Made by a program: the position numbers and the translations under genes
NCBI GenBank assembly: GCA_032622095.1
Contig: CP136069.1
Location: 8,882,036-8,946,035 of the forward strand
DNA from: Siphonodentalium dalli
Taxonomy: Eukaryota > Mollusca > Scaphopoda > Gadilida > Siphonodentaliidae
Length of the DNA: 64,000 nt
Direction: 5' to 3'
In this document: piece by piece, positions 7,601 to 42,365 of the stretch
Numbering within the stretch: position 1 is the stretch's first letter
How the letters are laid out: the number at the start of each line of letters is the position of its first letter
Notes under the pieces: model-generated
What the model was told of the DNA's origin: nothing
What the model saw: the letters and a program-made list of their open reading frames with translations, nothing else
The model's database searches: none

Positions 7601-7980
7601 GAACAGTCAATGTCAATATGAAACATTCAAGAAAAGTCAGTGTCAATATGAAACATTCAAGAAAAGTCAGTGTCAATATGAAACATTCAAGAAAAGTCAG
7701 TGTCAATATGAAACATTCAAGAACAGTCAATGTCAATATGAAACATTCAAGAACAGTCAATGTCAATATGAAACATTCAAGAACAGTCAATGTCAATATG
7801 AAACATTCAAGAAAAGTCAGTGTCAATATGAAACATTCAAGAACAGTCAATGTCAATATGAAACATTCAAGAACAGTCAATGTCAATATGAAACATTCAA
7901 GAACAGTCAATGTCAATATGAAACATTCAAGAAAAGTCAGTGTCAATATGAAACATTCAAGAAAAGTCAATGTCAATATG

Positions 7981-22290: not shown

Positions 22291-24966
22291 AAACATTCAA
22301 GAACAGTCAGTGTCAATATGAAACATTCAAGAAAAGTCAGTGTCAATATGAAACATTCAAGAGCAGTCAGTGTCAATATGAAACATTCAAGAAAAGTCAG
22401 TGTCAATATGAAACATTCAAGAAAAGTCAGTGTCAATATGAAACATTCAAGAAAAGTCAGTGTCAATATGAAACATTCAAGAGCAGTCAGTGTCAATATG
22501 AAACATTCAAGAGCAGTCAGTGTCAATATGAAACATTCAAGAGCAGTCAGTGTCAATATGAAACATTCAAGAGCAGTCAGTGTCAATATGAAACATTCAA
22601 GAAAAGTCAGTGTCAATATGAAGCATTCAAGAACAGTCAGTGTCAATATGAAACATTCAAGAGCAGTCAGTGTCAATATGAAACATTCAAGAAAAGTCAG
22701 TGTCAATATGAAACATTCAAGAACAGTCAGTGTCAATATGAAACATTCAAGAACAGTCAGTGTCAATATGAAACATTCAAGAACAGTCAGTGTCAATATG
22801 AAGCATTCAAGAACAGTCAGTGTCAATATGAAACATTCAAGAGCAGTCAGTGTCAATATGAAACATTCAAGAGCAGTCAGTGTCAATATGAAACATTCAA
22901 GAAAAGTCAGTGTCAATATGAAACATTCAAGAAAAGTCAGTGTCAATATGAAGCATTCAAGAACAGTCAGTGTCAATATGAAACATTCAAGAAAAGTCAG
23001 TGTCAATATGAAACATTCAAGAAAAGTCAGTGTCAATATGAAACATTCAAGAACAGTCAGTGTCAATATGAAACATTCAAGAAAAGTCAGTGTCAATATG
23101 AAACATTCAAGAAAAGTCAGTGTCAATATGAAACATTCAAGAAAAGTCAGTGTCAATATGAAACATTCAAGAAAAGTCAGTGTCAATATGAAACATTCAA
23201 GAAAAGTCAGTGTCAATATGAAACATTCAAGAGCAGTCAGTGTCAATATGAAACATTCAAGAACAGTCAGTGTCAATATGAAACATTCAAGAAAAGTCAG
23301 TGTCAATATGAAACATTCAAGAAAAGTCAGTGTCAATATGAAACATTCAAGAAAAGTCAGTGTCAATATGAAGCATTCAAGAGCAGTCAGTGTCAATATG
23401 AAACATTCAAGAGCAGTCAGTGTCAATATGAAACATTCAAGAAAAGTCAGTGTCAATATGAAACATTCAAGAGCAGTCAGTGTCAATATGAAACATTCAA
23501 GAGCAGTCAGTGTCAATATGAAACATTCAAGAAAAGTCAGTGTCAATATGAAACATTCAAGAAAAGTCAGTGTCAATATGAAACATTCAAGAGCAGTCAG
23601 TGTCAATATGAAACATTCAAGAAAAGTCAGTGTCAATATGAAACATTCAAGAAAAGTCAGTGTCAATATGAAACATTCAAGAAAAGTCAGTGTCAATATG
23701 AAACATTCAAGAAAAGTCAGTGTCAATATGAAACATTCAAGAAAAGTCAGTGTCAATATGAAACATTCGAGAAAAGTCAGTGTCAATATGAAACATTCAA
23801 GAAAAGTCAGTGTCAATATGAAACATTCAAGAAAAGTCAGTGTCAATATGAAACATTCAAGAAAAGTCAGTGTCAATATGAAACATTCAAGAAAAGTCAG
23901 TGTCAATATGAAACATTCAAGAAAAGTCAGTGTCAATATGAAACATTCAAGAAAAGTCAGTGTCAATATGAAACATTCAAGAAAAGTCAGTGTCAATATG
24001 AAACATTCAAGAAAAGTCAGGGTCAATATGAAGCATTCAAGAAAAGTCAGTGTCAATATGAAACATTCAAGAAAAGTCAGTGTCAATATGAAACATTCAA
24101 GAAAAGTCAGTGTCAATATGAAACATTCAAGAAAAGTCAGTGTCAATATGAAACATTCAAGAAAAGTCAGTGTCAATATGAAGCATTCAAGAACAGTCAG
24201 TGTCAATATGAAACATTCAAGAAAAGTCAGTGTCAATATGAAGCATTCAAGAAAAGTCAGTGTCAATATGAAGCATTCAAGAAAAGTCAGTGTCAATATG
24301 AAGCATTCAAGAAAAGTCAGTGTCAATATGAAACATTCAAGAGCAGTCAGTGTCAATATGAAACATTCAAGAAAAGTCAGTGTCAATATGAAGCATTCAA
24401 GAAAAGTCAGTGTCAATATGAAGCATTCAAGAAAAGTCAGTGTCAATATGAAACATTCAAGAGCAGTCAGTGTCAATATGAAGCATTCAAGAAAAGTCAG
24501 TGTCAATATGAAGCATTCAAGAAAAGTCAGTGTCAATATGAAGCATTCAAGAGCAGTCAGTGTCAATATGAAACATTCAAGAAAAGTCAGTGTCAATATG
24601 AAGCATTCAAGAAAAGTCAGTGTCAATATGAAGCATTCAAGAAAAGTCAGTGTCAATATGAAACATTCAAGAGCAGTCAGTGTCAATATGAAACATTCAA
24701 GAGCAGTCAGTGTCAATATGAAACATTCAAGAAAAGTCAGTGTCAATATGAAACATTCATGAACAGTCAGTGTCAATATGAAACATTCAAGAAAAGTCAG
24801 TGTCAATATGAAGCATTCAAGAGCAGTCAGTGTCAATATGAAACATTCAAGAAAAGTCAGTGTCAATATGAAACATTCAAGAAAAGTCAGTGTCAATATG
24901 AAACATTCAAGAAAAGTCAGTGTCAATATGAAACATTCAAGAAAAGTCAGTGTCAATATGAAACAT

Positions 24967-25516
24967 ATAAACCGTAAATTCACATTAGGATGATGTTGTA
25001 ATTTTACGATAGTTTTTCTGTCATAATATTACGATCATTTTGTAAATATACGATCACATTTGTAAATGTCAGAATAAGTTGATCTCGTAATTTTACGACA
25101 GTTACTGATGGTCCAATTGCTGCCAACAGTTTCTGTCGTAATATTACGATGAATTTTTTTTGAGTGATGATCATTTACATATACCAGTATGATTTTTTTA
25201 ATTACGGTTAACTAATCATCTAATCCTACGAAAGATTAACAAGCGGGCGCAAATTACGTTTACGTATCATCAAATTAGCACCTTGTTAGTTATTGGACTT
25301 GTTGAACAATCAGATACATGTATGTTTGTGCGAGCAAAACCAGTGCAATGTCACTAATATCACCATGGTTAAGTGGTCCTGTTGATGTGCTATGGCGTTG
25401 GAGGGTCCTGCTAAATTGCTACGATGTTGGTAGTGCAAACTGATGCTGTTAAGAAATGGACCGCTATTTTTTTCGAAACCTGTTATTTTCGCGGTGTTTG
25501 CAAAATCCGAGTGAAT
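24967..25516 (+). other. Interlude 1 inside the array: trapped flank plus left inverted repeat
   Basis: Unique sequence entered from a truncated unit (AAACAT, then ATAAACCG) and left through TCGAAGAACAG back into the array. Its first part, to about 25358, resembles nothing else here and has five copies of a short motif like TAATTTTACGA, TAATATTACGA or TAAATATACGA (25000-25152). Its last part (25359-25500) is the left inverted repeat of the array-bearing element. I read the first part as former host flank caught in a duplication. Short ORFs on both strands (for example 25310-25546 minus) are not convincing genes. Confidence 0.85.
25359..25500 (+). repeat. Left inverted repeat of array-bearing element (duplicate)
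   Basis: This stretch runs from ATCACCATGGTTAAGTGG to TTTTCGCGGTGTTTG. Read inward, it matches the reverse complement of 31987-32130, sharing GTTAAGT, TTGCTA-GATGTTG, AAACTGATG-TGT and TTTTCGCGGTGTTTG, with scattered mismatches. It is the same sequence as 30229-30370. A diverged version begins the relative at 41822. Confidence 0.75.
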
Positions 25517-28500
25517 CGAAGAACAGTCAGTGTCAAAATGAAACATTCAAGAAAAATCAGTGTCAATATGAAACATTCGAGAAAAGTCAGTGTCAATATG
25601 AAGCATTCAAGAAAAGTCAGTGTCAATATGAAGCATTCAAGAAAAGTCAGTGTCAATATGAAACATTCAAGAAAAGTCAGTGTCAATATGAAGCATTCAA
25701 GAAAAGTCAGTGTCAATATGAAACATTCAAGAAAAGTCAATGTCAATATGAAACATTCAAGAAAAGTCAGTGTCAATATGAAGCATTCAAGAAAAGTCAG
25801 TGTCAATATGAAACATTCAAGAAAAGTGAGTGTCAATATGAAGCATTCAAGAAAAGTCAGTGTCAATATGAAACATTTAAGAAAAGTCAGTGTCAATATG
25901 AAGCATTCAAGAACAGTCAGTGTCAATATGAAACATTCAAGAAAAGTCAGTGTCAATATGAAACATTCAAGAAAAGTCAGTGTCAATATGAAGCATTCAA
26001 GAAAAGTCAGTGTCAATATGAAGCATTCAAGAAAAGTCAGTGTCAATATGAAGCATTCAAGAAAAGTCAGTGTCAATATGAAACATTCAAGAACAGTCAG
26101 TGTCAATATGAAACATTCAAGAAAAGTGAGTGTCAATATGAAACATTCAAGAGCAGTCAGTGTCAATATGAAGCATTCAAGAACAGTCAGTGTCAATATG
26201 AAACATTCAAGAGCAGTCAGTGTCAATATGAAGCATTCAAGAACAGTCAGTGTCAATATGAAGCATTCAAGAGCAGTCAGTGTCAATATGAAGCATTCAA
26301 GAACAGTCAGTGTCAATATGAAGCATTCAAGAACAGTCAGTGTCAATATGAAGCATTCAAGAACAGTCAGTGTCAATATGAAACATTCAAGAGCAGTCAG
26401 TGTCAATATGAAACATTCAAGAACAGTCAGTGTCAATATGAAACATTCAAGAGCAGTCAGTGTCAATATGAAACATTCAAGAACAGTCAGTGTCAATATG
26501 AAGCATTCAAGAACAGTCAGTGTCAATATGAAACATTCAAGAGCAGTCAGTGTCAATATGAAACATTCAAGAACAGTCAGTGTCAATATGAAACATTCAA
26601 GAGCAGTCAGTGTCAATATGAAACATTCAAGAACAGTCAGTGTCAATATGAAACATTCAAGAGCAGTCAGTGTCAATATGAAACATTCAAGAACAGTCAG
26701 TGTCAATATGAAACATTCAAGAGCAGTCAGTGTCAATATGAAACATTCAAGAAAAGTCAGTGTCAATATGAAACATTCAAGAACAGTCAGTGTCAATACG
26801 AAACATTCAAGAACAGTCAGTGTCAATATGAAGCATTCAAGAACAGTCAGTGTCAATATGAAACATTCAAGAGCAGTCAGTGTCAATATGAAACATTCAA
26901 GAACAGTCAGTGTCAATATGAAACATTCAAGAGCAGTCAGTGTCAATATGAAACATTCAAGAACAGTCAGTGTCAATATGAAGCATTCAAGAGCAGTCAG
27001 TGTCAATATGAAACATTCAAGAACAGTCAGTGTCAATATGAAGCATTCAAGAGCAGTCAGTGTCAATATGAAACATTCAAGAACAGTCAGTGTCAATATG
27101 AAACATTCAAGAAAAGTCAGTGTCAATATGAAACATTCAAGAGCAGTCAGTGTCAATATGAAACATTCAAGAGCAGTCAGTGTCAATATGAAACATTCAA
27201 GAACAGTCAGTGTCAATATGAAACATTCAAGAAAAGTCAGTGTCAATATGAAACATTCAAGAGCAGTCAGTGTCAATATGAAACATTCAAGAAAAGTCAG
27301 TGTCAATATGAAACATTCAAGAAAAGTCAGTGTCAATATGAAACATTCAAGAAAAGTCAGTGTCAATATGAAACATTCAAGAGCAGTCAGTGTCAATATG
27401 AAACATTCAAGAGCAGTCAGTGTCAATATGAAACATTCAAGAGCAGTCAGTGTCAATATGAAACATTCAAGAGCAGTCAGTGTCAATATGAAACATTCAA
27501 GAAAATTCAGTGTCAATATGAAGCATTCAAGAACAGTCAGTGTCAATATGAAACATTCAAGAGCAGTCAGTGTCAATATGAAACATTCAAGAAAAGTCAG
27601 TGTCAATATGAAACATTCAAGAACAGTCAGTGTCAATATGAAACATTCAAGAACAGTCAGTGTCAATATGAAACATTCAAGAACAGTCAGTGTCAATATG
27701 AAGCATTCAAGAACAGTCAGTGTCAATATGAAACATTCAAGAGCAGTCAGTGTCAATATGAAACATTCAAGAGCAGTCAGTGTCAATATGAAACATTCAA
27801 GAAAAGTCAGTGTCAATATGAAACATTCAAGAAAAGTCAGTGTCAATATGAAGCATTCAAGAACAGTCAGTGTCAATATGAAACATTCAAGAAAAGTCAG
27901 TGTCAATATGAAACATTCAAGAAAAGTCAGTGTCAATATGAAACATTCAAGAACAGTCAGTGTCAATATGAAACATTCAAGAAAAGTCAGTGTCAATATG
28001 AAACATTCAAGAAAAGTCAGTGTCAATATGAAACATTCAAGAAAAGTCAGTGTCAATATGAAACATTCAAGAAAAGTCAGTGTCAATATGAAACATTCAA
28101 GAAAAGTCAGTGTCAATATGAAACATTCAAGAGCAGTCAGTGTCAATATGAAACATTCAAGAACAGTCAGTGTCAATATGAAACATTCAAGAAAAGTCAG
28201 TGTCAATATGAAACATTCAAGAAAAGTCAGTGTCAATATGAAACATTCAAGAAAAGTCAGTGTCAATATGAAGCATTCAAGAGCAGTCAGTGTCAATATG
28301 AAACATTCAAGAGCAGTCAGTGTCAATATGAAACATTCAAGAAAAGTCAGTGTCAATATGAAACATTCAAGAGCAGTCAGTGTCAATATGAAACATTCAA
28401 GAGCAGTCAGTGTCAATATGAAACATTCAAGAAAAGTCAGTGTCAATATGAAACATTCAAGAAAAGTCAGTGTCAATATGAAACATTCAAGAGCAGTCAG

Positions 28501-29836
28501 TGTCAATATGAAACATTCAAGAAAAGTCAGTGTCAATATGAAACATTCAAGAAAAGTCAGTGTCAATATGAAACATTCAAGAAAAGTCAGTGTCAATATG
28601 AAACATTCAAGAAAAGTCAGTGTCAATATGAAACATTCAAGAAAAGTCAGTGTCAATATGAAACATTCAAGAAAAGTCAGTGTCAATATGAAACATTCAA
28701 GAAAAGTCAGTGTCAATATGAAACATTCAAGAAAAGTCAGTGTCAATATGAAACATTCAAGAAAAGTCAGTGTCAATATGAAACATTCAAGAAAAGTCAG
28801 TGTCAATATGAAACATTCAAGAAAAGTCAGTGTCAATATGAAACATTCAAGAAAAGTCAGTGTCAATATGAAACATTCAAGAAAAGTCAGGGTCAATATG
28901 AAGCATTCAAGAAAAGTCAGTGTCAATATGAAACATTCAAGAAAAGTCAGTGTCAATATGAAACATTCAAGAAAAGTCAGTGTCAATATGAAACATTCAA
29001 GAAAAGTCAGTGTCAATATGAAACATTCAAGAAAAGTCAGTGTCAATATGAAGCATTCAAGAACAGTCAGTGTCAATATGAAACATTCAAGAAAAGTCAG
29101 TGTCAATATGAAACATTCAAGAAAAGTCAGTGTCAATATGAAGCATTCAAGAAAAGTCAGTGTCAATATGAAGCATTCAAGAAAAGTCAGTGTCAATATG
29201 AAACATTCAAGAGCAGTCAGTGTCAATATGAAACATTCAAGAAAAGTCAGTGTCAATATGAAGCATTCAAGAAAAGTCAGTGTCAATATGAAGCATTCAA
29301 GAAAAGTCAGTGTCAATATGAAACATTCAAGAGCAGTCAGTGTCAATATGAAGCATTCAAGAAAAGTCAGTGTCAATATGAAGCATTCAAGAAAAGTCAG
29401 TGTCAATATGAAGCATTCAAGAGCAGTCAGTGTCAATATGAAACATTCAAGAAAAGTCAGTGTCAATATGAAGCATTCAAGAAAAGTCAGTGTCAATATG
29501 AAGCATTCAAGAAAAGTCAGTGTCAATATGAAACATTCAAGAGCAGTCAGTGTCAATATGAAACATTCAAGAGCAGTCAGTGTCAATATGAAACATTCAA
29601 GAAAAGTCAGTGTCAATATGAAACATTCATGAACAGTCAGTGTCAATATGAAACATTCAAGAAAAGTCAGTGTCAATATGAAGCATTCAAGAGCAGTCAG
29701 TGTCAATATGAAACATTCAAGAAAAGTCAGTGTCAATATGAAACATTCAAGAAAAGTCAGTGTCAATATGAAACATTCAAGAAAAGTCAGTGTCAATATG
29801 AAACATTCAAGAAAAGTCAGTGTCAATATGAAACAT

Positions 29837-30386
29837 ATAAACCGTAAATTCACATTAGGATGATGTTGTAATTTTACGATAGTTTTTCTGTCATAATATT
29901 ACGATCATTTTGTAAATATACGATCACATTTGTAAATGTCAGAATAAGTTGATCTCGTAATTTTACGACAGTTACTGATGGTCCAATTGCTGCCAACAGT
30001 TTCTGTCGTAATATTACGATGAATTTTTTTTGAGTGATGATCATTTACATATACCAGTATGATTTTTTTAATTACGGTTAACTAATCATCTAATCCTACG
30101 AAAGATTAACAAGCGGGCGCAAATTACGTTTACGTATCATCAAATTAGCACCTTGTTAGTTATTGGACTTGTTGAACAATCAGATACATGTATGTTTGTG
30201 CGAGCAAAACCAGTGCAATGTCACTAATATCACCATGGTTAAGTGGTCCTGTTGATGTGCTATGGCGTTGGAGGGTCCTGCTAAATTGCTACGATGTTGG
30301 TAGTGCAAACTGATGCTGTTAAGAAATGGACCGCTATTTTTTTCGAAACCTGTTATTTTCGCGGTGTTTGCAAAATCCGAGTGAAT
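29837..30386 (+). other. Interlude 2, identical by eye to interlude 1
   Basis: Same 550-bp sequence as 24967-25516 at an offset of 4,870 bp, with no difference that I can see. It again contains the five TTACGA-type motifs and ends in the left inverted repeat (30229-30370). The identity over non-repetitive DNA shows that the 4.87-kb duplication is very young or kept homogeneous. Confidence 0.9.
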
Positions 30387-31836
30387 CGAAGAACAGTCAG
30401 TGTCAAAATGAAACATTCAAGAAAAATCAGTGTCAATATGAAACATTCGAGAAAAGTCAGTGTCAATATGAAGCATTCAAGAAAAGTCAGTGTCAATATG
30501 AAGCATTCAAGAAAAGTCAGTGTCAATATGAAACATTCAAGAAAAGTCAGTGTCAATATGAAGCATTCAAGAAAAGTCAGTGTCAATATGAAACATTCAA
30601 GAAAAGTCAATGTCAATATGAAACATTCAAGAAAAGTCAGTGTCAATATGAAGCATTCAAGAAAAGTCAGTGTCAATATGAAACATTCAAGAAAAGTGAG
30701 TGTCAATATGAAGCATTCAAGAAAAGTCAGTGTCAATATGAAACATTCAAGAAAAGTCAGTGTCAATATGAAGCATTCAAGAACAGTCAGTGTCAATATG
30801 AAACATTCAAGAAAAGTCAGTGTCAATATGAAACATTCAAGAAAAGTCAGTGTCAATATGAAGCATTCAAGAAAAGTCAGTGTCAATATGAAGCATTCAA
30901 GAAAAGTCAGTGTCAATATGAAGCATTCAAGAAAAGTCAGTGTCAATATGAAACATTCAAGAACAGTCAGTGTCAATATGAAACATTCAAGAAAAGTGAG
31001 TGTCAATATGAAGCATTCAAGAAAAGGGAGTGTCAATATGAAGCATTCAAGAAAAGTCAGTGTCAATATGAAGCATTCAAGAAAAGTCAGTGTCAATATG
31101 AAGCATTCAAGAAAAGTCAGTGTCAATATGAAGCATTCAAGAACAGTCAGTGTCAATATGAAACATTCAAGAAAAGTCAGTGTCAATATGAAACATTCAA
31201 GAAAAGTCAGTGTCAATATGAAACATTCAAGAAAAGTCAGTGTCAATATGAAACATTCAAGAACAGTCAGTGTCAATATGAAACATTCAAGAAAAGTGAG
31301 TGTCAATATGAAGCATTCAAGAAAAGTGAGTGTCAATATGAAGCATTCAAGAAAAGTGAGTGTCAATATGAAGCATTCAAGAAAAGTCAATGTCAATATG
31401 AAGCATTCAAGAAAAGTCAGTGTCAATATGAAGCATTCAAGAACAGTCAGTGTCAATATGAAACATTCAAGAAAAGTCAGTGTCAATATGAAGCATTCAA
31501 GAAAAGTCAGTGTCAATATGAAACATTCAAGAAAAGTCAGTGTCAATATGAAACATTCAAGAAAAGTCAGTCTCAATATGAAGCATTCAAGAACAGTCAG
31601 TGTCAATATGAAGCATTCAAGAACAGTCAGTGTCAATATGAAACATTCAAGAACAGTCAGTGTCAATATGAAACATTCAAGAAAAGTCAGTGTCAATATG
31701 AAACATTCAAGAAAAGTCAGTGTCAATATGAAACATTCAAGAAAAGTCAGTGTCAATATGAAACATTCAAGAAAAGTCAGTGTCAATATGAAACATTCAA
31801 GAAAAGTCAGTGTCAATATGAAACATTCAAGAACAG

Positions 31837-31986
31837 ATATACTTTGAAATAAATATAAAATCGGTTGCGCTGGTGCTTATGAATATCGGTTTGCAGCAGT
31901 CAACAACCTATTATTAAAATAGTTTATAACATATATGTTTTTAATGTTTTGTACACAAAACGACTTCTACTAGATTCGTTATTAGC
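31837..31986. other. Spacer between array end and right inverted repeat
   Basis: AT-rich sequence with no ORF. It holds short matches to the same place in the unexpanded relative (AGATATAC right after the last unit; TATTATTAAAA followed by ACATATAT), so it belongs to the element rather than to the host. Confidence 0.55.
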
Positions 31987-32130
31987 CAAACACCGCGAAA
32001 ATGACAACTTTAGATAAAATAACCATACACTATCTTCACAACATCAGTTTCCCTCACCAGCATCATAGCAGTTCATCGTGGCCAAACAACATCATAGCAA
32101 ATTAGCATGACTACTTAACAGGGGTGACTA
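31987..32130 (-). repeat. Right inverted repeat of array-bearing element
   Basis: Begins CAAACACCGCGAAAATGACAA and ends CTTAACAGGGGTGACT. Its reverse complement aligns with 30229-30370 along its length with mismatches. The same landmarks, in diverged form, close the relative at 42264-42365 (CCAAACACTGCAAAAATA, ACAACATCAGTTTGCCC, CATCATAGCAACTCAG, CTTAACCAGGG). Confidence 0.75.
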
Positions 32131-33142
32131 TAATGTAGTCATTAACGATGTGTTCCGCGTGAACCAATCAAGTGCGCAATGATGCACATAACATTAACAA
32201 TCGAACACTTTTATCGAAATTTGGTTTATGATCAACATACCAAGTGTGAATGTGTAGTTGTTTGTGATGTGCTGACGTTAAACTTTTACTTCGGATTCAA
32301 TCTATTTTCAGGGGGTACGCGGGCATAATTCCATTTGCACCCTCTCTTGCAACCCAGTGATCAGGCCTAATAGCCTATATATTCACAAACCATTATATAT
32401 ACACTGTATGAGAACATTCCGATATTGGAACCTGAAAATTGCATATGATATATCCTAACATATAGTGGTCCAACTCCAGACAAACACACATGGCTACGGA
32501 CAAGAGACCAGGACCATAGTTGTTCGGCTCGGTGTGAGAAAATTTTGAAAACTAAACGAGAAAATCTCAAATCCTAGCATCTAGACTGGCCTCAATCTTT
32601 CCTAGTGTTGGAAATTTCAAACCTCATACTCACCCTTAGGCTGGGAAATTCTCCAACTGATGACCATTCCGCCAACAAATTGTTTGAAAATCAAACTTCA
32701 AGAACATTTTCAACCTAGTGTAACGTTGGTGTGAAATTTCTAACTAATGTTGTGACAGGTATTAAATTTCCAACTGTCCGTGTTCACAACCCACTGTAAG
32801 CCGATATTGAGGATGCGTATACCCTGCCTTAAATGGTATACATGGCTTCAAATAATAGGCTGATACGCGAATTTAATGGCGACAAATTTTGCTATTTGAT
32901 GGCTTATATACTGGGCCATTTTAGCCCTTTTTGTCCTTGCTCGGGTCTCCTTCTGTTATGCAGGCGTTATACGTTGTCCTTGGCATAGAGTATAATATAT
33001 AGCTGGCAGGACCCTTTTCTGTAATGTGGTGCAGTTTGGTCGATTACTATTCAGAAAATGGATGAAAATAGATGGTTTTCAAGTGTGAAATCTACATGTA
33101 TGTCCTTCATCACACATTTTCTTAACTGTATGGAATTAAGTA
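32131..33142. other. Non-coding stretch with a dispersed GGAAATTT-type repeat
   Basis: No convincing gene. From about 32460 to 32800 there is a sequence with spaced GGAAATTTC, GAAATTTCTAAC and AAATTTCCAAC motifs. Similar motif-rich stretches occur at 34890-35110, 35570-35840 and 48750-49030, the last in the opposite orientation, so this looks like an old dispersed repeat. The ORF at 32367-32570 (minus) shows nothing recognisable. Confidence 0.4.
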
Positions 33143-33533
33143 TCCACCCCATCTGTTAACTGGCGTTCAGTATTCAACCCATTTGTTAACTGGGATGCAG
33201 TAGTCACCCCTATGTTAACTGGCATTCAGTTTGGACCACTTCTGTCAGCTGGCATTCAGTATTCAGCACCTCTGTTAACTGATATTCAGTAGTCACCCCA
33301 TCTGTTAACTAGCAATTAGTATTCACCACATATATTAACTGGCATTCAGTATTCACACCTTCTGTTAACTTGCAATCAGTATTCACCCCATCTGTTAACT
33401 GGCATTCAGTATATGTACCCCTTCTGTTAACTGGCATCCCGTACACAATATGTTAACTTGCCATCAATATTCACCCCCTATGTTAACTGGCATTCAGCTT
33501 TCACCCACACTGTTGACTGGTATTCATAATTCA
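33143..33533 (+). repeat. Second minisatellite, about 30-bp degenerate unit, about 13 copies
   Basis: Degenerate tandem copies of a unit reading roughly TCTGTTAACTGGCATTCAG followed by TATTCACCCC. Unit length drifts between about 27 and 33 bp and copies differ at several positions, so the array is much older than the giant one. It is 1.3 kb from the end of the giant array but unrelated in sequence. Confidence 0.9.
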
Positions 33534-33763
33534 GGGGAAAGTAAATTAAATTGATAACAAAGTATTACCTTTGATTTTGAGATAACCTGTTATAACATGA
33601 ACGTTTACAGAAGATATCTTCGACACAATTACTTATCTTTCATTATACATATATTATCGATATTAGATCGTTGTTATTACCGGGGGTTCATTAAAAATGA
33701 CGTTTTGTCTCCCTTTAATTCCGACAACGAATCGTTAGGATGATACGTTAAATACATGTTATG

Positions 33764-34130
33764 TACTTGTTCGGGTGCGTGAAACAGATAAGTTAGTATT
33801 CAGGTGCTATGTAAACTGGGTGAATGTATCATTCTACTAACATCACCGAAAACATAAAGCAAATCGACCGTACCATTCCATAGAAAACATTGTCTAAACT
33901 ATGCTAAATTGTAAATATTTACTACTGGAATCGGGATGCTTCTGTCGGCGATGAACTATCGAAAACGATTTCGCCATCGACATTCACTGAATTTAATTAA
34001 TATATAAGAATGACGGTGTGTGTTGTCAATATAGATAACATATATATATATATATAAATAACTACTTTGAACAAGAGTATTCTCCATTTATATTTTATCA
34101 CCATACCGGAATGTTTCACATCACTTTAAC
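33764..34130 (+). repeat. Dispersed repeat A, copy 1
   Basis: Starts ACTTGTTCGGGTGCGTGAAA and ends at TTTCACATCACTTTAAC. Its reverse complement is present at 48124-48480 with similar length and many shared blocks (GATAAGTTAGTA, GCATTCTACTAACATC, TTGTAAATATTTAC, TTAATTAATATATAAGAATG, AATAACTACTTTGA). The distal part (34060-34128) can be read as a peptide with FEQEYS and FHITL, which recurs in the other copies. Confidence 0.75.
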
Positions 34131-36099
34131 GAAAACCATATGTTCCAGAATATGAACGGAAACAGTGCGTTATTAACGAGATTTTGTTGTTAATATATTT
34201 GTCATGTGCAAATAGACATTAGTTCACGACATATGTTCCTCGACATTACGCGATAACATCTTGTTTAGTTGTTGTGGAAATGCCACGTATAATTCTTCGA
34301 TTTGTCATGCGAGAATAGAGGATCTCATTAGAACCACATGGTACACCTCACTCTCAATAAATACCCAGTGGCGCCCCACCAGTCACCAATCTGTTTCAGA
34401 GTTCCAAAGAAGATTCCTGCAGGTGAGTGGAGTTTTATTTCAAATTCTTTTTTTTAGTGTAGGGAAACTTTTATAGAAGTTCTTTTTCAAGTAAGCACAT
34501 TTATTGTCAATGACAAAAGTGTTAGTTCTTTATAAAAAAGGGTCTAACTCCGTCAAAAAGCACCGAACCATGACAAACTTCTAACTTATCTAACAACTTG
34601 GGGTAGGGTTTAGGACTGTTTTAGTCTACAATGTAGGGCGTGCAGTTATAAACTCCATAAAACTTGAACTATGCAATTGGGACCCGGAGTAAGTTGTGAG
34701 AGTACAGTACATGTAGTACGTTATATTAGTTACATTGAAAGACAAACATTCTCCTAAAAATCAACCTAATTTGAACGTGGCGACAGGGAGGTTGTTGGTC
34801 ACCCCAATTTGGTAAAAAAAATTCAAAGGTTGCATGAAATGTCATGTCATGTCATGCCAACATTATTTGCAAATTTTACACAACTATTGGTTGAAATTGT
34901 TCTCATTGTTTGATTTTCCAACCAGTGGGGTATTTGTTCTTTTTAGACCAACAGTAGCATAAATTTCTTACTTTTGGTTGGTTGGTCTGAAATTTTCTAA
35001 ACTTTTAGGTGGATGTCAGGTTGGAAATTTCTAAACAGTTGAAAAGCTTGAAGTGCTAGTTGAAAAGTTCCATTCTAACCAGGGGGTGGTGCAAATATAA
35101 TTCCACAGACATGGTTCAATGGGAGGTACATTGGAAATGTCAAGGTGGACTCCAGTCATCCTCTCCCACACTCCTCGTGGACTCTATTGCCATGTCCATG
35201 CGCTATATATCTTACTAACATCGCGGTGATCAACATATAGGCTGATAAGTACATTTAATACTCTCATAAGGACTTCATATCCCTCAAAAATACATATTCA
35301 GGTCGTAGAAATTTAGAAATATCTGGTCCCGACTTTTCTTCAGCCTGGATCAATAATGAGCGTTCGATCTTTGCTATTGTTTTTCTGATATGGTACACAT
35401 AAATTGCATTTGTCCGAATATGTCGCACATTCGGGCGTTAATTTTAAAACACATGGTCAATATTGCTATGACATTGTCAATGTTTGTCACAGGACACGTA
35501 CATGGACTTGACAACAGGGTATGACGAGGGGGAGATCGGGTTCGAGTGATCAATCTAAAACCCCAACTTTGGCCAAATCTTTCAATAGTTGGAAATTTCA
35601 TGCCAAACACAACATTTGTTGGAAATTTTACAGTAACTGTATATGTTGGAATTATTCTGTTATTTTGATTTTTCGACCAGTATTTAATATGAAATATGTT
35701 GTTTAAACATAAAAAATATTTAAAAAAAAATCCTATTTGTGTCAAATGTTTGGTCTGAACTGGGCATCAGTCGGTAATTTCCCAACTTTAGAGGGTGCAG
35801 AAAGAAATTGTCCAAGAGGTACCACAAGGTACCAACTTCAACCCGTAGGGCTGGAACTGGAATGTTAATGTCTTCGGAAAAATCTGTCTGTAAAATGTTT
35901 ACAATATTTAAAATAAACATAGCATGGGAGTTGTTGGTACATGAGAGGCGATGGACGTGTCCTTGAGAAACTTCTCATTGATGAAGAATATGGCAATCAT
36001 CTACTTTTGCAGATAATTCCAACCACATCGATAATGCCATTCCAAAAAAAAAAAAATGGAAGACGAATATAAAGTCTGAAGTAATTTATGCATAAGTAT
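34131..36099. other. Non-coding stretch between dispersed repeats
   Basis: No supported gene. Two further GGAAATTT-type stretches lie here (34890-35110 and 35570-35840). An AT run and a short A run at 36045 are present. The ORFs at 34261-34476, 35374-35745, 35521-35706 and 35997-36215 have no recognisable domains and unremarkable composition. Confidence 0.4.
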
Positions 36100-36215
36100 G
36101 ATGTTTCGTTATGGATATACCAGTTATGATAATGACCACTTTGTGGAAGAGCATTCTCTATTCTCATCAAATTTACACAGCGAAGGGATCCATATAACTT
36201 TAACCTATGGCACAC
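36100..36215 (+). repeat. Dispersed repeat A, diverged fragment (copy 3)
   Basis: ATAATGACCACTTTGTGGAAG to CATATAACTTTAACC parallels AATAACTACTTTGAACAAG to CACATCACTTTAAC of copy 1. The resemblance is clearest when both are translated: the frame reads HFVEEHS and then GIHITL here, against YFEQEYS and then GMFHITL in copy 1. Confidence 0.45.
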
Positions 36216-36252
36216 TTCCGTATTTCATGATCAGGAATTATCAGCCTTTTAC

Positions 36253-36386
36253 ATGTGCCATCAGAACCCCAGGAAACCATTGATAATATGGGAGACCCTT
36301 GCTGAAAACAGACATCAAGAGAGACAGCTCAAACACATCGCGTACACATTGTCATTGAATAAGACTACAATCATCAATAACATACA
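36253..36386 (+). pseudogene. Non-LTR retrotransposon C-terminal remnant, left part
   Basis: A short open frame whose residues (LIIWETLAENRHQERQLKHI and on) have the look of the region before the C-terminal zinc knuckle of a LINE ORF2. It runs into a MITE at 36387, and the knuckle itself lies on the other side of that MITE in the same orientation. Assigning both parts to one old LINE is inference. The upstream reverse transcriptase is absent. Confidence 0.35.
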
Positions 36387-36942
36387 ACCTTACTCATATT
36401 TAAATTTGCGCAGTACTATTTTTCGCGCACCCATCGGCGCGCGAATTTAAAACTGAGCGAAAAATAGTACGACTCCCAAGTTTAATCTAAACCATAGTCC
36501 ATAAAAGAGTGCTATGTTGCTGAGTTTACATATATTATGAATGGTTGAATAGACAATTGTGCCAACACATATATACATTCGGCTAACCGCTATCAAGACC
36601 ATTGCTCACAATTAAAGCGACATATCATGGTAACCTAGACATTGTTGAAATGCTTGTATAAGCAAAATGCTGATAGTCCAGGTCATGTATGTTGTCACTA
36701 GTTTATTGTCTACATGATGTAAATCCGCCGCGATGGTGTTCATACACATATACTATCTATGGCAATGACTAAGAGCCGAAACTGTCATCAGCTCCAAGAT
36801 ATATAAGAAAATATCACTGAAATATTACGAAAATAGTTTTCTCAGTTTTGAATTCGCGCAGTTATAGGTGCGCGAATTTAAAGTGCGCGAATTCAAAACT
36901 GAGTGAAAAATAGTACTGCGCGATTTTAAATAGGAGTAAGGT
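36387..36942. mobile_element. MITE with about 45-bp terminal inverted repeats (556 bp)
   Basis: Left end ACCTTACTCATATTTAAATT then GCGCAGTACTATTTTTC. The right end, reverse complemented, reads ACCTTACTCCTATTTAAAAT then CGCGCAGTACTATTTTTC. Inner copies of GCGCGAATTTAAA and AAAACTGAG-GAAAAATAGTAC make further inverted repeats at 36421-36470 and 36838-36920, so both ends are themselves foldbacks. It has no coding capacity. The target duplication is unclear. It splits a LINE-like remnant. Confidence 0.8.
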
Positions 36943-37174
36943 ATGTCGTTCATGTGGCGAAAACTATCAGAATGAACTGAAGCATGTTCTTATCGCGTGT
37001 CATTCCCTGGTATTGGTGTACATCAGAAATACATATTGGGACTTGATCGTCAACAAGTATGGAGTGGACATTTACGTATTCGTAAGCCACCTAACTGATG
37101 ATCAGTTCGAGTCACCCATATTATGGAATGTTGGTATGTGTGCAGACTCTGACCTGTTACCAATCTATATCTAA
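36943..37174 (+). pseudogene. Non-LTR retrotransposon C-terminal remnant with CCHC knuckle, right part
   Basis: The frame beginning at the MITE edge contains VCRSCGENYQNELKHVLIAC, a C-x2-C-x9-H-x4-C pattern like the C-terminal zinc knuckle of LINE ORF2 proteins. Aromatic and basic residues follow (NTYWDLIVNKYG), then a stop at 37172-37174. The family cannot be named from this fragment. It presumably formed one frame with 36253-36386 before the MITE inserted. Confidence 0.45.
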
Positions 37175-37184
37175 CTTCATATCG

Positions 37185-37424
37185 TACTTAGTGCGGTCAT
37201 GTAGAAAAATTATTTATGATCATTATTTAAATAGAGCCACATTTACTATTAAAATGGATCATCAACCCTTAAAATATTTATCAACAACTCAGTATAATAA
37301 TCCGAAAATTCAGAGGTGGATGTTGTGTTTATCAGCTTATAATTGTATTATAGAATATCTGCCAGGTAGTGAACATTGTTTTACAAAGACGGGAACTTCA
37401 GGCCCCAAAAATACAAGCAGGTAA
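37185..37424 (+). pseudogene. Ty3/gypsy-type RNase H fragment
   Basis: The open frame includes FTIKMDHQPLKYL, then KIQRWMLCLSAY and IEYLPGSEH. These are the order and spacing typical of the RNase H domain of Ty3/gypsy pol (D-H-x-x-L, then a tryptophan, then YxPG). Only about 70 residues are recognisable; the reverse transcriptase, integrase and LTRs are not seen, so this is a dead fragment. It directly follows the LINE-like fragment, so the stretch is a junkyard of old insertions. Confidence 0.7.
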
Positions 37425-38463
37425 ACACGTACATATATGCATATAATTAAATAGCGTTATTTGTTATAAATATTGCGGACTCCAACAGTCCAACTCCTTG
37501 TACGCATAAAATGCGCTAATACATAATTATTTAATATAATGTAGGATAACGTTTTGTGGCCGACATTCAATGTCGGCCATTTAGTCAGTCCGCCCGTCCG
37601 TCCGTTTGCGTCTGTTTTCCGCGAGTGATTTTTATGTCTCACCTGGATGCCATAATTTGTGTATACTATATTTAATATGCAAAATACACATATGATAACG
37701 CGGAAATATGTAAACTATAGGAATTGATGCGCCCGATGCGATCTCGGTGGATTCCGATACCTCCCGCTAACAACAAGGGCACCTCCGATGTTTATATTAA
37801 CAATACAACCTGTCTACGACTGTTGTTGAATTTATAGTTGTAAATGTTGGGCTTTGTAAGTGTATACCATCGTGTAAGCAATTCATGATATTCAGGATTC
37901 TCTACAATTTTATTTACACTATTTTTATTTTTGACTGGCTAAAACTGCTCCTACGGCAGACTGTCTGTTCATCATTGGCATTATATAAGCCTCCGGTGAG
38001 CAAGGCGGGGTACCTTGTCTGTGGGCCCAGGACACTGTGGCATCACCTGCTCATTCTGTATATGGGCTCTATAAAGCAGATTTATTAAGTAGAATACCTG
38101 AGACAGAAGCACAAATGTCTGACAACAATATATATATACATACTAAGTGTTGTCATCACTAAATCCAGCATTCTGATTGGTCGACGCCCACGTGGCTAGT
38201 TGCAATTATTTCTCGGTGAATGCGCAACAGCTAATAACTACAAGCTCATAACAACATCAATACGTCATTTGGGTTTGGAAAGACGAACGCGTAATGTTTT
38301 GGGCGCATTTGTATTCGCGCAGGATTGACTTAATAAATCATCGGGTTCCAATTGTTCCTGTTAACTTTTGCCAAGGGTGCTATGGGATATTTTGGGCTGG
38401 TTTTGTCACGATACACTTTTCGATTTAAATACATTTACACAAGTGGCTTTATCGCTAAATGTA
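37425..38463. other. Non-coding stretch with one perfect hairpin
   Basis: No supported gene. A 23-nt palindrome lies at 37557-37579 (TGGCCGACAT, TCA, ATGTCGGCCA), followed by CCGT repeats at 37597-37612. The hairpin, TTAG and CCGT order is loosely like the ends of the Helitron-like elements further right, but I would not call an element from it. The ORF at 37885-38088 has no recognisable domain. Confidence 0.4.
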
Positions 38464-38489
38464 TCTATATATATATATAACCCGTCGTC

Positions 38490-38530
<41 letters not shown>

Positions 38531-39187
38531 ATAACTCGGTCACGCTTTTGGCGCGTTTATAACTTTTCAAACATGCGTCCAATGTGGCCCAAATTTGTAC
38601 CCCGACCTATCGTGTGTCATAAAAGGTGACTCACCAAATTTCACGCCGATTGGTTAAAGTAAACCTGAGACCTAACATGCTCCCCAAATGCAGCATTTGC
38701 ACTCAAGTAGACACTTTTTCTTATGACGTTAGTCGAAATGACGTCATTGACGTCGAACGCAAACCAACACTTGCTTTGCTATTGTAGGCGAAACTTCCAT
38801 GCGCTCTACCAAAGCGTTGTAAAGAATGCTCTATTTGATACGAAAGTTGTGCATTGAATGTGGAATCGAACGAGTACCGGTATACTCGGAAGATGGCGAA
38901 TGGACACAGTCTGGCCTCCCGCCAGTGGGTACCGCGAACTCAGTTAGAAAAATCACATTCCCGAGCCGGGACTAATAGTACAGAGTAAACACTACTGTTG
39001 ACGCTAATTAATGCTCTTTTAGTCTTTCGGTTGAGTGCAAATCTGATACAAAAAATGTTTAAAAGATCAAAATGTGCGCGAAGCGCACAAAGTTAAAGAT
39101 CATATAATGTGCGCGAGGCTCACAAGGGGCTATAGGCCCCTCACCACAAAATAAAGGTTCCGAATTGAGCCTGTTTCAGTTAGTATA
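38464..39187 (+). mobile_element. Helitron-like non-autonomous element, copy a (3' truncated)
   Basis: Begins A|TCTATATATA, then ACCCGTCGTCTG, a TG run (38491-38530), then TATAACTCGGTCACGCTTTTG and about 600 bp shared with copies at 53753, 55491, 57496 and 58666. The shared blocks include CACCAAATTTCACGCCGATTGG, GACGTCATTGACGTCGAACG, GAAGATGGCGAATGGACA and AATGTGCGCGAAG. It stops at TTCAGTTAGTATA, where CACTG of the next element begins. The 5' TC after A fits Helitrons; no Rep/helicase gene is present. Confidence 0.65.
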
Positions 39188-39660
39188 CACTGTAAAAATA
39201 GGTGTTTAGGATCTCAACACAATCTTAAACGCAATACCGTTACAGTTTTCACACGCGTCCACGCATTTATTTTCTAAATGGAATGTTTATTATCTAAACG
39301 TCACGTTTTTAATGAATAAATGTCAAATATGTTTAGAAAATAAACAAATGTGTTTAAGGAATAAACACATAGTGTTAACATGGCGTTTAGTTTCTAAACA
39401 TATTGATGTGTTTATTACCTAAACACCACGTTTGTGTCATTAAACACATATAATGTTTTGGAAATAAACGCATTATAATAACATGCCATTTAGGTTATAA
39501 ACATAATAATGTGTTTAGCTGATGTGTTTATGTGTTTAGGTTAAAAACACATCGGGGCGTTTATGGGGTTGTTCCACTTTACACACACATGGACACGTTT
39601 ATAAGACGAAATATGTTTATAAAATAGAATGTGTTTATTCAAGTAACATATTTAACAGTA
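39188..39660. repeat. Subterminal GTGTTTA repeats, left end of the CACTG element
   Basis: About 400 bp with a dozen or more GTGTTTA, TGTTTAG or TAAACAC motifs in both orientations. In plant CACTA elements such clusters are transposase binding sites; a similar role here is inference. The right end (53600-53752) has a shorter cluster. Confidence 0.6.
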
Positions 39661-40165
39661 ACAGGATAGTAAAATTTACATATGTTTAACAGCTACAGAC
39701 AAAACATAATTAAAATTATACATTCTCACAGTTCAATAGTTGTATACATATTTTCAGGCTGATTTTGATGTTAGGTCTAAAAAATAGTCATGTTTCCGCT
39801 AACAGACGGGGACAAAATTAGGGGGGGGGGGGGGTAAATAATATTTTATTTTTTTTAACATTCATATATGGATTATATTCATCTGTTTTTCCAAGGGACT
39901 TGTAATAAACATAGGGTGCTAAATAAGCACTGTAATGGTGGGATTTTAACACAAATGATCCTAACTACATGTACCTGTATTCGGGGCCAGAAAATATAAT
40001 CAGAGATAATAAAGGAAATTTTAATTAGGTTTTTGCATTTATTAATTTTTTCACGGGTTAGTACAATAGTAGCGGCGAATGTCCGGAAATATCACTATTT
40101 TTTTTTACCTTAGCAGTAATGCATTAGGAAAATTTATACGTTTCTCAATATTCTTGAGACCTTAA
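39661..40165. other. Non-coding stretch with a G run
   Basis: No gene or recognisable element. A long G run lies near 39821-39834, flanked by T-rich sequence. Confidence 0.4.
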
Positions 40166-40502
40166 AGGGGTAATGTATACTAAATCCAGTAATTTTTGGG
40201 ACCATCTCCTTTTATACTCAACAGATTATGTGTAAGAAATGAATGAATTTGAGCCATGTATTAGTGCAAAATCCACTCATATGCTCTATGAACGATGCAA
40301 ATAACATGGTAATTATAATGAATATGAATACATGACTCATTTTAATTATAATTATCATGATGTTTGCATTGTTATTAGAACACATGAGTGTATTTTGCGC
40401 TCATCCATGGCTCTAATTTATTCATTTGTTCCATTGATTCTGTTATAAAAGGAGATGATCCTATAAAATGCCAGATTTAGGGTACACTGGTACAGTCCCC
40501 CT
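40166..40502. mobile_element. Foldback MITE with TTAA target duplication (337 bp)
   Basis: Flanked by TTAA at 40162-40165 and 40503-40506. The left arm AGGGGTAATGTATACTAAATC continues through ACCATCTCCTTTTATA, GAATGAATTTGAGCCATG and CAAAATCCACTCATATG. The right arm is its imperfect inverted copy (about 130 bp each). TTAA is the target of piggyBac-type transposases. Half-copies of the same family occur at 48029-48123 and 49475-49590. Confidence 0.8.
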
Positions 40503-41821
40503 TTAAAAAAAACAAAAAAAAACAGCTTGCCTACACAAAGTCCAAAACGAATTGCTACAAAGTAATCTACCGGGTATCTATAATTCCAAAATGTTTGCTG
40601 CCTTGCACCTAATACAACTGAGTTATTCCAATAGTTCTCTGTGGTAATGTCAAAATGTGCTATTTTCCATGACTGCTCATAGTACTGGTGTATACAAATT
40701 ATGTTTCACATAGATATTAACACATTAAAAGACTGCATTATAAACATATTTAATATGTTGCTATAATTTCTACATACTAATGACCTAACGATAGATGTGT
40801 CGTAATTCGGTCTGGAGCCATGAATATATCCTTGAAAATTCAGCACAAAAGCATATGAAAATAGGCATAACATTGTAGATGGTGCCATAAGTTATTCAAT
40901 TAAATATACGGATGGCCTTTGCGCTGTGTATTGTGTTATAAATCTTTGGTTAAAATTGAAGCCAGATTATTTATAACATACCGATAAGGCGCTCACTAAT
41001 CCTCGTCACTCAAGATATTTCAATATTGATTGGTCACAGTAAATCACTCTCGGAAAAAAATTGCCACTTTGTTCATTATTTTGCTTATCAAACACTAATT
41101 ATGTCATGTATATAAACAAATGCTTAGTTCACACAAAGTGTGTTTTGTGGGTAATATCGCATTCATACTATCATTATAGTGTACTATTATAGTATATTCA
41201 TGAGTAAATTCATAATATGGTAACTTATTTGTCTAAATTATAACCTACAACCATGGCCATCAGTACCGTTAAAATGTTAAATATATCAACTTTTCTAAAT
41301 ATATAAGATTGAGAATAGAAAGCAGCAACAATATATCTTTAGCACCAAAAGATGAGTTGTCAAAACAGAGAAAGCTGTTTGTGACAAAACAATGGCATAC
41401 CTAGCCAGTACTATTGTTCTGAACATGCAGAGCTACAACAGTTATTCCCATTGATTTCATGATTTGTTAACCCTCCATAACTGGAGCCTCGCAAATATAA
41501 GAGAATACATTGGCCTAACAACATTTACATTGACCTTGTAAGCCAGTGCTTTCTCTCAAATATGTAAGACCCTCTATGGGATCCGGACTCACATTTATAA
41601 GAGAATGCACTGGCACAGGATCTTAAGTGCTGCACCAGCGCAGATCCCATCATAAAAGGATTAAAAATAGATACTCCTCATAATCAAGAAACTCCAACTA
41701 TTCATGTGGTGGATCCCACAGAAAAATGTTAAATCAGATGCAGTCTCAGATACTGTGCTGCAGATTGATTGTTATAAGGCCACATATACATATCAGTTCA
41801 TAATGCATATACCAAAGCCTG
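40503..41821. other. Non-coding stretch within the CACTG element
   Basis: I see no gene. The ORF at 40706-40888 (minus) has no recognisable domain. Two similar sentences of sequence around 41485-41530 and 41560-41610 (AAATATAAGAGAATACATTGG-type and ATTTATAAGAGAATGCACTGG-type) suggest a small old duplication. Confidence 0.35.
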
Positions 41822-42365
41822 TGACTCGCCCTCTGGTCCTGTTAATTTGCTATGATTTTGGATGATCTTGCTGAATTGATTTGGTGCTGGTAGAAATAAA
41901 TGATGCTGTTAAGAAAATGAATTATTTTACCTAAGTTATCATTTTTGCTGTTCATGATTTAACGAATCGAAGAAAAGCAGTTGTGTGTGTTTAAAACATT
42001 CAAGATATACATGTATATTGCGAAATATTTTAACAATTGATGTGTTGGTTGTTGCAAATAGACCATAATCAAGATGGCTGGCTATTCATATCATTTTACA
42101 AATACCAGCACAGGCATTATTAAAACATATATTAAGTAGTTTCATTTCCTTGACCATTTTTCTGTAGTCCAGTTCATATATACCGGTATATATATAGCAA
42201 AATTTAACATCATCGGATATTTAGTAGACACTGTTTTTTCTCAAATCGCTTAATAGAGTACTTAACCAAACACTGCAAAAATAAATAATGGTACTTTTTC
42301 TTACAACATCAGTTTGCCCTTCTAACATCATAGCAACTCAGCAGAACCACTTAACCAGGGATGTG
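41822..42365 (+). mobile_element. Unexpanded relative of the array-bearing element (single repeat unit)
   Basis: The left half has GGTCCTGTTAATTTGCTATG, then TGATGCTGTTAAGAAA and AACGAATCGAAGAAAAGCAG, paralleling GGTCCTGTTGATGTGCTATG, TGATGCTGTTAAGAAA and GTGAATCGAAGAACAGTCAG of the array element. The right half has ATTATTAAAACATATAT, CCAAACACTGCAAAAATA, ACAACATCAGTTTGCCC and CTTAACCAGGG, paralleling the array element's right end. Between them, where the array would be, stands one unit equivalent: TCGAAGAAAAGCAG (41967-41980) to AAAACATTCAAG (41993-42004), then ATATAC as after the array. Its own two ends are inverted copies of each other. It is thus the same kind of element before, or without, repeat expansion. 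Confidence 0.8.

What the first reader, a model, noticed from the sequence alone, without database searches (positions are those of the whole stretch)
30229..42365. Expanded and unexpanded forms of one element: a transposon seeding a giant satellite array
The flanks of the giant array (30229-30382 left, 31837-32130 right) match, in the same order and orientation, the left and right halves of 41822-42365. There the whole array is replaced by one repeat-unit equivalent (41967-42004). The window therefore shows what looks like an ancestral single-unit state 10 kb from a copy expanded to about 1,000 units. Tandem-repeat-bearing MITEs are known in bivalves, but expansion of this size next to an unexpanded relative is unusual.
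Basis: partly seen in the sequence, partly recalled or inferred. Interest (0 to 1): 0.85.

Follow-up and report, generated by a model that had tools for sequence, protein, structure and literature searches.

The report
Single transposon unit grown into giant array
A 30-letter stretch that occurs once in most copies of a small jumping element has, in one copy, multiplied into a 142,000-letter tandem array, and sister copies with one, two, three or more units show steps on the way.

Summary
The array is not about 1,000 units: it spans C9:8,771,330-8,913,868, about 4,700 30-bp units at one locus, inside a palindromic non-autonomous transposon with CACC-starting inverted repeats and 5-bp target duplications. 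41822-42365 is a distant, inverted member (15 of 15 comparisons); its 'unit' lies in the opposite arm. The proper unexpanded state is at C9:24.32 Mb and C6:224.65 Mb: sister copies sharing outer flank, with exactly one unit between imperfect 8-bp direct repeats 30 bp apart. Most of about 5,400 family cores elsewhere seem single. A complete pattern list found 13 other loci with tandem cores (units 26-28 or 39 bp); a dimer and a trimer were read inside the element. Another array has a 36-bp unit and spans at least 8.8 kb (C1). Unit-order blocks and internal left flanks show growth by block duplication and exchange. Best reading: repeated minisatellite birth at one site of a transposon, with one runaway case.

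The parts
1..24967 (+). Right-hand part of the main block of the 30-bp array (main block = C9:8,771,330-8,907,002, about 4,522 units, mostly outside the window)
   Evidence: TRF; pattern count and samples; unit parsing
24968..25512 (+). Internal copy 1 of the array's left flank: 3' end of another dispersed repeat (24968-about 25279), a short piece of host-repeat flank, and the left arm of the palindromic element (25361-25512)
   Evidence: Identical to 29838-30382; 5 of 553 positions differ from the true left end at C9:8,770,785
25513..29837 (+). Array block between the two internal left flanks, about 144 units
   Evidence: Lag of 4,870 bp: 176 mismatches in 6,316 bp; unit strings
29838..30382 (+). 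Internal copy 2 of the left flank; element left arm starts at 30231 (CACC), 5 bp before it AATAT
30383..31833 (+). Last array block, about 48 units; the only stretch between the flanks that the finding cites
31834..32126 (+). Right part of the element that holds the array, ending GGGGTG; next 5 bp ACTAT (4 of 5 match the left AATAT)
   Evidence: 97% and 95% identity to L010 and L011; ends
32127..33182 (+). Host-repeat DNA to the right of the element, shared with the unexpanded sister copies L010 and L011
   Evidence: BLASTN: 31799 to about 32670 at 93.0% (L010) and 95.7% (L011); a second piece to 33171 / 33182 at 83.6% and 89.2%
41822..42365 (-). Distant member of the same palindromic family, inverted relative to the array's element, inside a larger young repeat
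   Evidence: Inverted alignment better in 15 of 15; host repeat in 5 other copies
41967..42004 (-).
   Evidence: Alignments

Best explanation
A roughly 480-530 bp palindromic, non-autonomous DNA transposon carries in each arm a short core bounded by imperfect direct repeats. In one copy on C9 the left-arm core (30 bp, from AAGAAAAG to AAGAACAG) was duplicated, most likely by slipped-strand or microhomology-mediated replication between these repeats. The tandem then grew by unequal exchange and block duplication to about 4,700 units, with local homogenisation; at least one event copied the left flank into the array. The same core has been tandemised in other copies too. Shown: one ancestral unit, one giant derived array, the unit boundaries, block duplications, internal left ends, a dimer, a trimer and longer arrays at the same core elsewhere. 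Inferred: slippage as founding step, the exchange or repair pathway, and why this copy ran away.
For: L010 (C9:24.32 Mb) and L011 (C6:224.65 Mb) share the element and right outer flank and have exactly one unit. Of 19 loci aligned over the core, 17 (L010, L050 and L051 among them) show one; L001 and L019 do not align there. Unit length equals the spacing of the direct repeats in L011, and the array's A/C variant at unit position 15 (716 A, 381 C of 1,098) is the one mismatch between them. One locus: 4,391 forward and 0 reverse matches, 30.8 per kb against 26.7-32.7 in seven samples. Block repeats of unit order score up to 110, against 7-10 in 5 shuffles. All four combinations at 5 of 6 pairs of variant sites tested. 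An exact dimer (L089) and trimer (L090) at the same core in other copies; 13 loci in the complete list; a 36-bp array on C1.
Against: The founding repeats are short (7 of 8 bp), and L010 and L011 carry them without expansion, so they do not suffice. The first array unit has AAGAACAG where the sisters have AAGAAAAG, so the 5' boundary has changed. No intermediate was seen in the C9 array's own lineage; the dimer and trimer belong to another subfamily. The array is known from one assembly without reads, and the near-exact 4,870-bp duplication could hide an assembly error. The left outer flank matches the sisters only for about 85 bp next to the element and 178 bp of L011 further out; about 1 kb of L011 between was not found, another repeat lies there. 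One of six variant-site pairs (19/21) shows only three combinations.
Confidence: 0.8

Rival explanations
1. Collapse: the ancestral element carried an array, and the single-unit copies are contracted forms.
For: Tandem arrays contract readily; a passage in PMC5139131 describes shrinkage to a monomer in the clam element DTC84. Copies with 2, 3 and more units exist and could be steps downwards as well as upwards.
Against: 5,595 core matches genome-wide with up to 3 mismatches, of which about 150-180 are units of the C1 array (26 per 1,556 bases), against 13 loci with tandem cores of that subfamily type. The 100 places listed (exact matches on C1 and part of C2 only) lie far apart; one is the end unit of the C1 array. 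The four other copies of the C9 host repeat have one unit each. Few rare variants in the array (41 of 32,940 positions) suggest youth.
Confidence: 0.05
2. Rolling-circle amplification: units were excised as extrachromosomal circles, amplified and reinserted at this site, rather than growing by exchange.
For: Compatible with long near-identical blocks. Review and paper passages name this route (PMC12628747; PMC4079207).
Against: No piece of the 30-bp array on the reverse strand anywhere. Internal left flanks need duplication that includes single-copy flank, which a circle of units alone does not give. Several lags (112, 124, 129, 236 units) suggest repeated local duplications.
Confidence: 0.2
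3. Assembly artefact: the array, or its internal left flanks and the 4,870-bp duplication, is inflated or misjoined.
For: The two internal flank copies are identical over 553 bp, with 5 mismatches between 23,600 and 26,000 at that lag; no reads available.
Against: The array is not a perfect copy: variants change along it. The true left flank differs from the internal copies at 5 of 553 positions, four changed on the true left end and one on the internal copies, as expected of separate DNA.
Confidence: 0.1
4. The array is a pre-existing satellite into which the transposon inserted, or which a transposon captured.
For: Review passages give capture as one model for miDNA4 (PMC12628747).
Against: The unit is part of the element in copies without array, and the array lies exactly between the unit's own boundaries. 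No 30-bp array was found outside this locus, though short ones on the forward strand are not excluded.
Confidence: 0.02

Closest known systems
miDNA4, a Tc1/mariner MITE of Xenopus tropicalis carrying a satellite (Scalvenzi and Pollet 2014; seen only as passages of two reviews, PMC12628747 and PMC9659126)
   Same: Non-autonomous inverted-repeat transposon whose internal motif exists as single monomer or as array of variable number; short flanking direct repeats proposed to drive expansion.
   Different: Here one locus carries about 4,700 units with sister copies that show the prior state in shared flanking DNA; target duplication is 5 bp (5 of 10), not the TA of Tc1/mariner (recalled).
Tetris / TIR-220, foldback transposon of Drosophila virilis (PMC4079207, passages)
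   Same: Palindromic non-autonomous element whose internal repeats grew into satellite-like arrays.
   Different: Tetris arms carry tandem repeats of about 220 bp and assembled arrays reach 66 copies; here the precursor is one 30-bp unit and the array about 4,700 units.
FRA16B / FRA10B AT-rich minisatellite expansions in humans (PMC9714581, passages)
   Same: Short AT-rich unit (33 and about 42 bp) at one locus, for FRA16B expanded to as many as 2,000 repeats.
   Different: The usual FRA16B allele holds 7-12 repeats and expansion varies between people; here the prior state is one unit in paralogous transposon copies, and variation between individuals is unknown.
pearl-family MITEs with internal repeats in bivalves, e.g. 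DTC84 and CvA (PMC5139131, passages)
   Same: Inverted-repeat elements with satellite-like core repeats.
   Different: Short arrays (up to six monomers); no sequence comparison was made here.
Ogre-derived satellites of Lathyrus sativus (PMC7004042, passages)
   Same: Long arrays arising from tandem subrepeats within a transposable element.
   Different: LTR retrotransposon with existing short arrays; long arrays predominantly in primary constrictions.

Membership tests
Non-autonomous TIR DNA transposon (MITE / foldback type) | Terminal inverted repeats | tested here: met
   L011 aligns to its own reverse complement over nearly its full length (score 276); 10 of 14 copies examined anchor both ends on CACCCCTGGTCAAGTGG with up to 5 substitutions; L008, L070, L010 and L011 did not
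Non-autonomous TIR DNA transposon (MITE / foldback type) | Target-site duplication of fixed length | tested here: met
   5 bp exact in 5 of 10 anchored copies, 0 of 90 mispaired controls. The array's own element: AATAT / ACTAT, 4 of 5
Non-autonomous TIR DNA transposon (MITE / foldback type) | High copy number and short length | tested here: met
   5,595 core matches, about 150-180 of them from the C1 array; 16 copies measured 451-536 bp
Non-autonomous TIR DNA transposon (MITE / foldback type) | No transposase gene of its own | not tested
   The length makes one unlikely; no ORF or family search of the element was run
Transib superfamily (CAC-starting TIR, 5-bp TSD; recalled) | Related autonomous element with Transib transposase | not tested
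   TIR start and TSD length are compatible; no transposase was sought
Tc1/mariner MITE such as miDNA4 | TA target duplication (recalled) | tested here: not met
   Exact 5-bp duplications in 5 of 10; exact 2-bp matches 2 of 10
Satellite DNA (multi-locus) | Arrays of the 30-bp unit at many loci | tested here: not met
   4,391 forward and 0 reverse matches; density fits one locus
Minisatellite (single locus, short unit, variant repeats) | Locus-specific tandem array with interspersed variant units | tested here: met
   30-bp unit, 40 distinct types among 1,098 parsed 30-bp units, five common variable positions
Minisatellite (single locus, short unit, variant repeats) | Length variation between individuals | not testable with these tools
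   One assembly only

The most novel reading that the evidence does not exclude
The element carries a recurrent satellite-birth site. The same arm core stands in tandem at 15 loci or more: the C9 array (30 bp, about 4,700 units), a C1 array (36 bp, at least 8.8 kb), and 13 loci with units of 26-28 or 39 bp, from exact dimer and trimer to a span of 1.6 kb. The homologous core of the opposite arm is a 47-bp array at C9:148.92 Mb. Four unit classes (27-28, 30, 36, 39 bp) are most simply separate births. The palindrome and the direct repeats around the core would be the cause, and thousands of single-unit copies would be built-in controls. Against proof: the searches were aimed at this core, other sites of the element were not searched equally, and 28-bp loci may descend from one dimer by transposition.
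Probability: 0.5. Interest if true: 0.7.

Novelty: new member of a known kind. Interest (0 to 1): 0.58.

Why it matters
How a tandem array starts is usually inferred after the fact, since the founding site is erased. Here the before state survives in sister copies that share flanking DNA, the founding repeats can be read, copies with two, three and more units exist in the same genome, and the extreme case is 142 kb long with unit-order marks of its growth. Which sequence features make a single-copy stretch expand can thus be tested by comparing thousands of copies of one element within one genome.

Tried and rejected
Rejected: 41822-42365 as the ancestral form (inverted, 15 of 15). The spacer in the array as a short element bounded at 29838: the same repeat continues upstream in 9 of 9 relatives examined and at the true left end, so 29838 is a rearrangement breakpoint, with (by eye) one extra base and no clear microhomology. 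Coding function: long open frames run through the array (up to 6,771 aa on the minus strand) because the unit is 30 bp and free of stops in some frames; five 29-bp units and the inserts interrupt them, so I take them as mechanical; coding was not tested otherwise. Multi-locus 30-bp satellite.

For that reason I raised the hot-spot reading from 0.35 to 0.5, the main explanation from 0.78 to 0.8 and interest from 0.52 to 0.58.

Led nowhere or incomplete: the organism was not identified. The far end of the C1 array was not read; it lies between 18,594,154 and 18,596,000, and only about 1.6 kb of that array was read. No copy closer than about 78% to the arm of the C1 element appeared among the 40 candidates scored, so its before state is not shown. 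Of the 13 loci two were read. The superfamily was not determined. Topic searches on minisatellite birth gave no paper that I opened; the model of slippage at non-contiguous repeats (Taylor and Breden; Haber and Louis) is recalled.
Full report
WHAT WAS CHECKED. The finding pairs an expanded element (30229-32130) with an unexpanded one (41822-42365). TRF reads one 30-bp array from base 1 to 31833, so the array starts outside the window. It contains two non-array stretches, 24968-25512 and 29838-30382, identical to each other. The cited left flank 30229-30382 is part of the second. A third copy, differing at 5 of 553 positions, is the true left end at C9:8,770,785-8,771,337. The array therefore spans C9:8,771,330-8,913,868: 142,539 bp, or 141,449 bp of units after removing the two inserts, about 4,715 units. 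A pattern of 34 bases with up to 2 mismatches matches 4,391 times on the forward and 0 times on the reverse strand of the 2.23-Gb genome; the list shows only the first 100 places, all at this locus. Seven samples of the array (46.4 kb together) give 26.7-32.7 matches per kb, against 30.8 if all 4,391 lie here. So I take it as one locus; a short array elsewhere on the forward strand is not excluded. A 6-kb sample and four 1.5-kb samples along the main block are array throughout.

THE ELEMENT. Array flanks and relatives define a palindromic element of about 480-530 bp. Ten of 14 copies examined could be anchored at both ends on CACCCCTGGTCAAGTGG; 5 of these 10 have an exact 5-bp duplication, against 0 of 90 mispaired controls. 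It is thus a real transposon, probably moved by an unseen autonomous partner (inference). The array's own copy has AATAT and ACTAT at its ends.

41822-42365 belongs to the family (scores 191 and 262, against at most 68 in 100 shuffle trials), but the inverted orientation scores better against 15 of 15 copies. The five other close copies (99.0-99.3%) exist because a larger young repeat carries the element, over about 2.5 kb including flanks.

THE TRUE UNEXPANDED STATE. The right half of the array's element finds two near copies, 97% and 95% identical. Both continue into the same outer DNA on the right: 93.0% over 874 columns (L010) and 95.7% over 877 (L011), then a further piece at 83.6% and 89.2%. 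On the left they share about 85 bp next to the element, where another repeat then lies at the array locus. A further 178 bp of L011 matches beyond that repeat, but about 1 kb of L011 in between was not found. L011 reads, between the same boundaries as the array, GAATCGAAGAAAAGTCAGTGTCAATATGAAACATTCAAGAACAGATATAC: one unit. L010 also has one unit, with a small deletion beside it. L050 and L051, two copies of the same host repeat on C4 whose element appears split by an insertion of about 5.8 kb, also have one. Of 19 loci aligned over the core, 17 (L010, L050 and L051 among them) show one core; L001 and L019 do not align there. L081, which shares the 3' repeat AAGAACAG, also reads as single. A 26-base family core matches 2,520 + 3,075 times with up to 3 mismatches. 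About 150-180 of these are units of the C1 array below (26 per 1,556 bases read), none are in the C9 array of the window, and some belong to the loci. The 100 places listed, exact matches on C1 and part of C2, lie far apart, and one is the end unit of the C1 array.

HOW IT PROBABLY BEGAN. In L011 and L010 the unit lies between AAGAAAAG and AAGAACAG, starting 30 bp apart. The spacing equals the unit length, and their single mismatch (A/C) is the commonest variant within the array (position 15: 716 A, 381 C, 1 T of 1,098 units). L050 and L051 have AAGAACAT at the 3' side, one match fewer. This fits slipped-strand duplication between imperfect direct repeats. It is inference: both sisters have the repeats without expansion, and no intermediate of this lineage was seen.

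HOW IT GREW. In 1,098 parsed units from the window and the left end, 5 positions vary commonly and 41 of 32,940 positions carry other variants. All four combinations occur at 5 of 6 position pairs tested; pair 19/21 has three. Parts of units have therefore been exchanged, or the same changes recurred. Unit-order blocks recur at lags of 129, 124, 236 and 112 units, scores 110, 87, 65 and 65, against 7-10 in 5 shuffles. A 4,870-bp lag has 176 mismatches in 6,316 bp. The internal left flanks begin inside a neighbouring repeat, at a near-palindrome, with array before them. Behind them 3 of the first 6 units, one of a rare type, equal those of the true left end. So a segment reaching from the left flank into the array was duplicated. 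Of the 5 differences between true and internal left flank, comparison with 9 relatives (four sites) and with L010 and L011 (the fifth) puts 4 on the true left end and 1 on the internal copies. Unit composition shifts along the array, as local homogenisation would give.

RECURRENCE. A pattern demanding two cores in tandem gives 3,170 forward matches; the sampled density (1,027 in 46.4 kb) predicts about 3,150 for the C9 locus. It gives 186 reverse matches, of which the 100 listed all lie at C1:18,585,389-18,592,873. That is a second array with a 36-bp unit (43.4 copies at 96% in the 1.55 kb read). It lies next to an arm of the same family and, at the end that was read, has the same core boundary. 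It reaches at least 18,594,154 and ends before 18,596,001. A narrower pattern, for the commonest core type, gives 72 matches, all listed, at 13 loci: C1:92.17 Mb (13 matches, span 767 bp), C2:30.30 and 31.18 Mb (1 each), C3:191.00 Mb (1) and 191.05 Mb (10), C4:19.23 Mb (1), C5:55.79 Mb (3, 39-bp unit), C5:202.87 Mb (2), C5:209.39 Mb (20, span 1.6 kb), C7:18.39 Mb (4) and 142.03 Mb (1), C8:30.22 Mb (12, 27-bp unit) and 140.66 Mb (3); the remaining units are mostly 28 bp, a few 26. Two of the 13 were read: C2:30.30 Mb is an exact dimer and C5:202.87 Mb an exact trimer of 28 bp, within the arm of the element (scores 500 and 617 against family copy L067). In the opposite arm, C9:148.92 Mb has 47-bp units, about 15 plus 3; L020 has 29 bp by 9 in its terminal repeat. 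TRF over 35 family loci (29 distinct; 6 were refetched) found arrays of five or more units within the element in 2 of 29, L020 and L045; L067 has two 12-bp arrays outside its element. Unit classes of 27-28, 30, 36 and 39 bp are most simply separate births; some of the 28-bp loci may be copies of one tandem-bearing element. Whether the core exceeds other sites is open, because I searched the core on purpose.

COMPARISON. Single-monomer and array forms of a MITE-borne satellite with flanking microhomology are described for miDNA4 (review passages). Foldback-derived arrays are known from Tetris (up to 66 copies; passages). A short AT-rich unit grown to as many as 2,000 repeats is known from FRA16B (passages). 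So the kind is known. Unusual are the size from a single unit, the surviving sister copies with shared flank, and the graded series at one site in one genome. My topic searches showed no report of this family in their listings, but the organism is unknown and most subscription papers are not held.

LIMITS.

Noticed in passing
33131-33533: A second 30-bp minisatellite (13.5 copies) in the host repeat 1.3 kb from the array; two C4 copies of that repeat (L012, L013) hold at least 14.6 and about 20.3 copies (the L012 stretch starts at the locus end).
   Followed up: partly
L087:1492-3045 (C1:18.585 Mb): 36-bp array, 8.8-10.6 kb, next to an arm of the same family at the same core.
   Followed up: partly
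L045:2424-3644 (C9:148.92 Mb): 47-bp array in the opposite arm of a family copy, interrupted by an insertion of about 320 bp.
   Followed up: partly
L020:1669-1928: Terminal repeat of a family copy with nine tandem 29-bp units.
   Followed up: no
genome-wide: Family cores are uneven between strands (2,520 forward, 3,075 reverse); the C1 array explains only about 150-180 of the excess of 555, and tandem loci some more. The rest is unexplained.
   Followed up: partly
49655-52168 (minus): 837-aa open frame with weak Plavaka and Transposase_21 matches (E 0.0009 and 0.005, both below the curated cut-offs); perhaps a transposase gene.
   Followed up: no
4668-24983 (minus): A 6,771-aa open frame runs through the array because the unit is 30 bp and lacks stops in that frame; taken as mechanical.
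   Followed up: partly
24968 and 29838: Rearrangement breakpoint inside a dispersed repeat at a near-palindrome (TTTACGGTTAAACCGTAAA at the true left end), with one extra base at the junction.
   Followed up: partly
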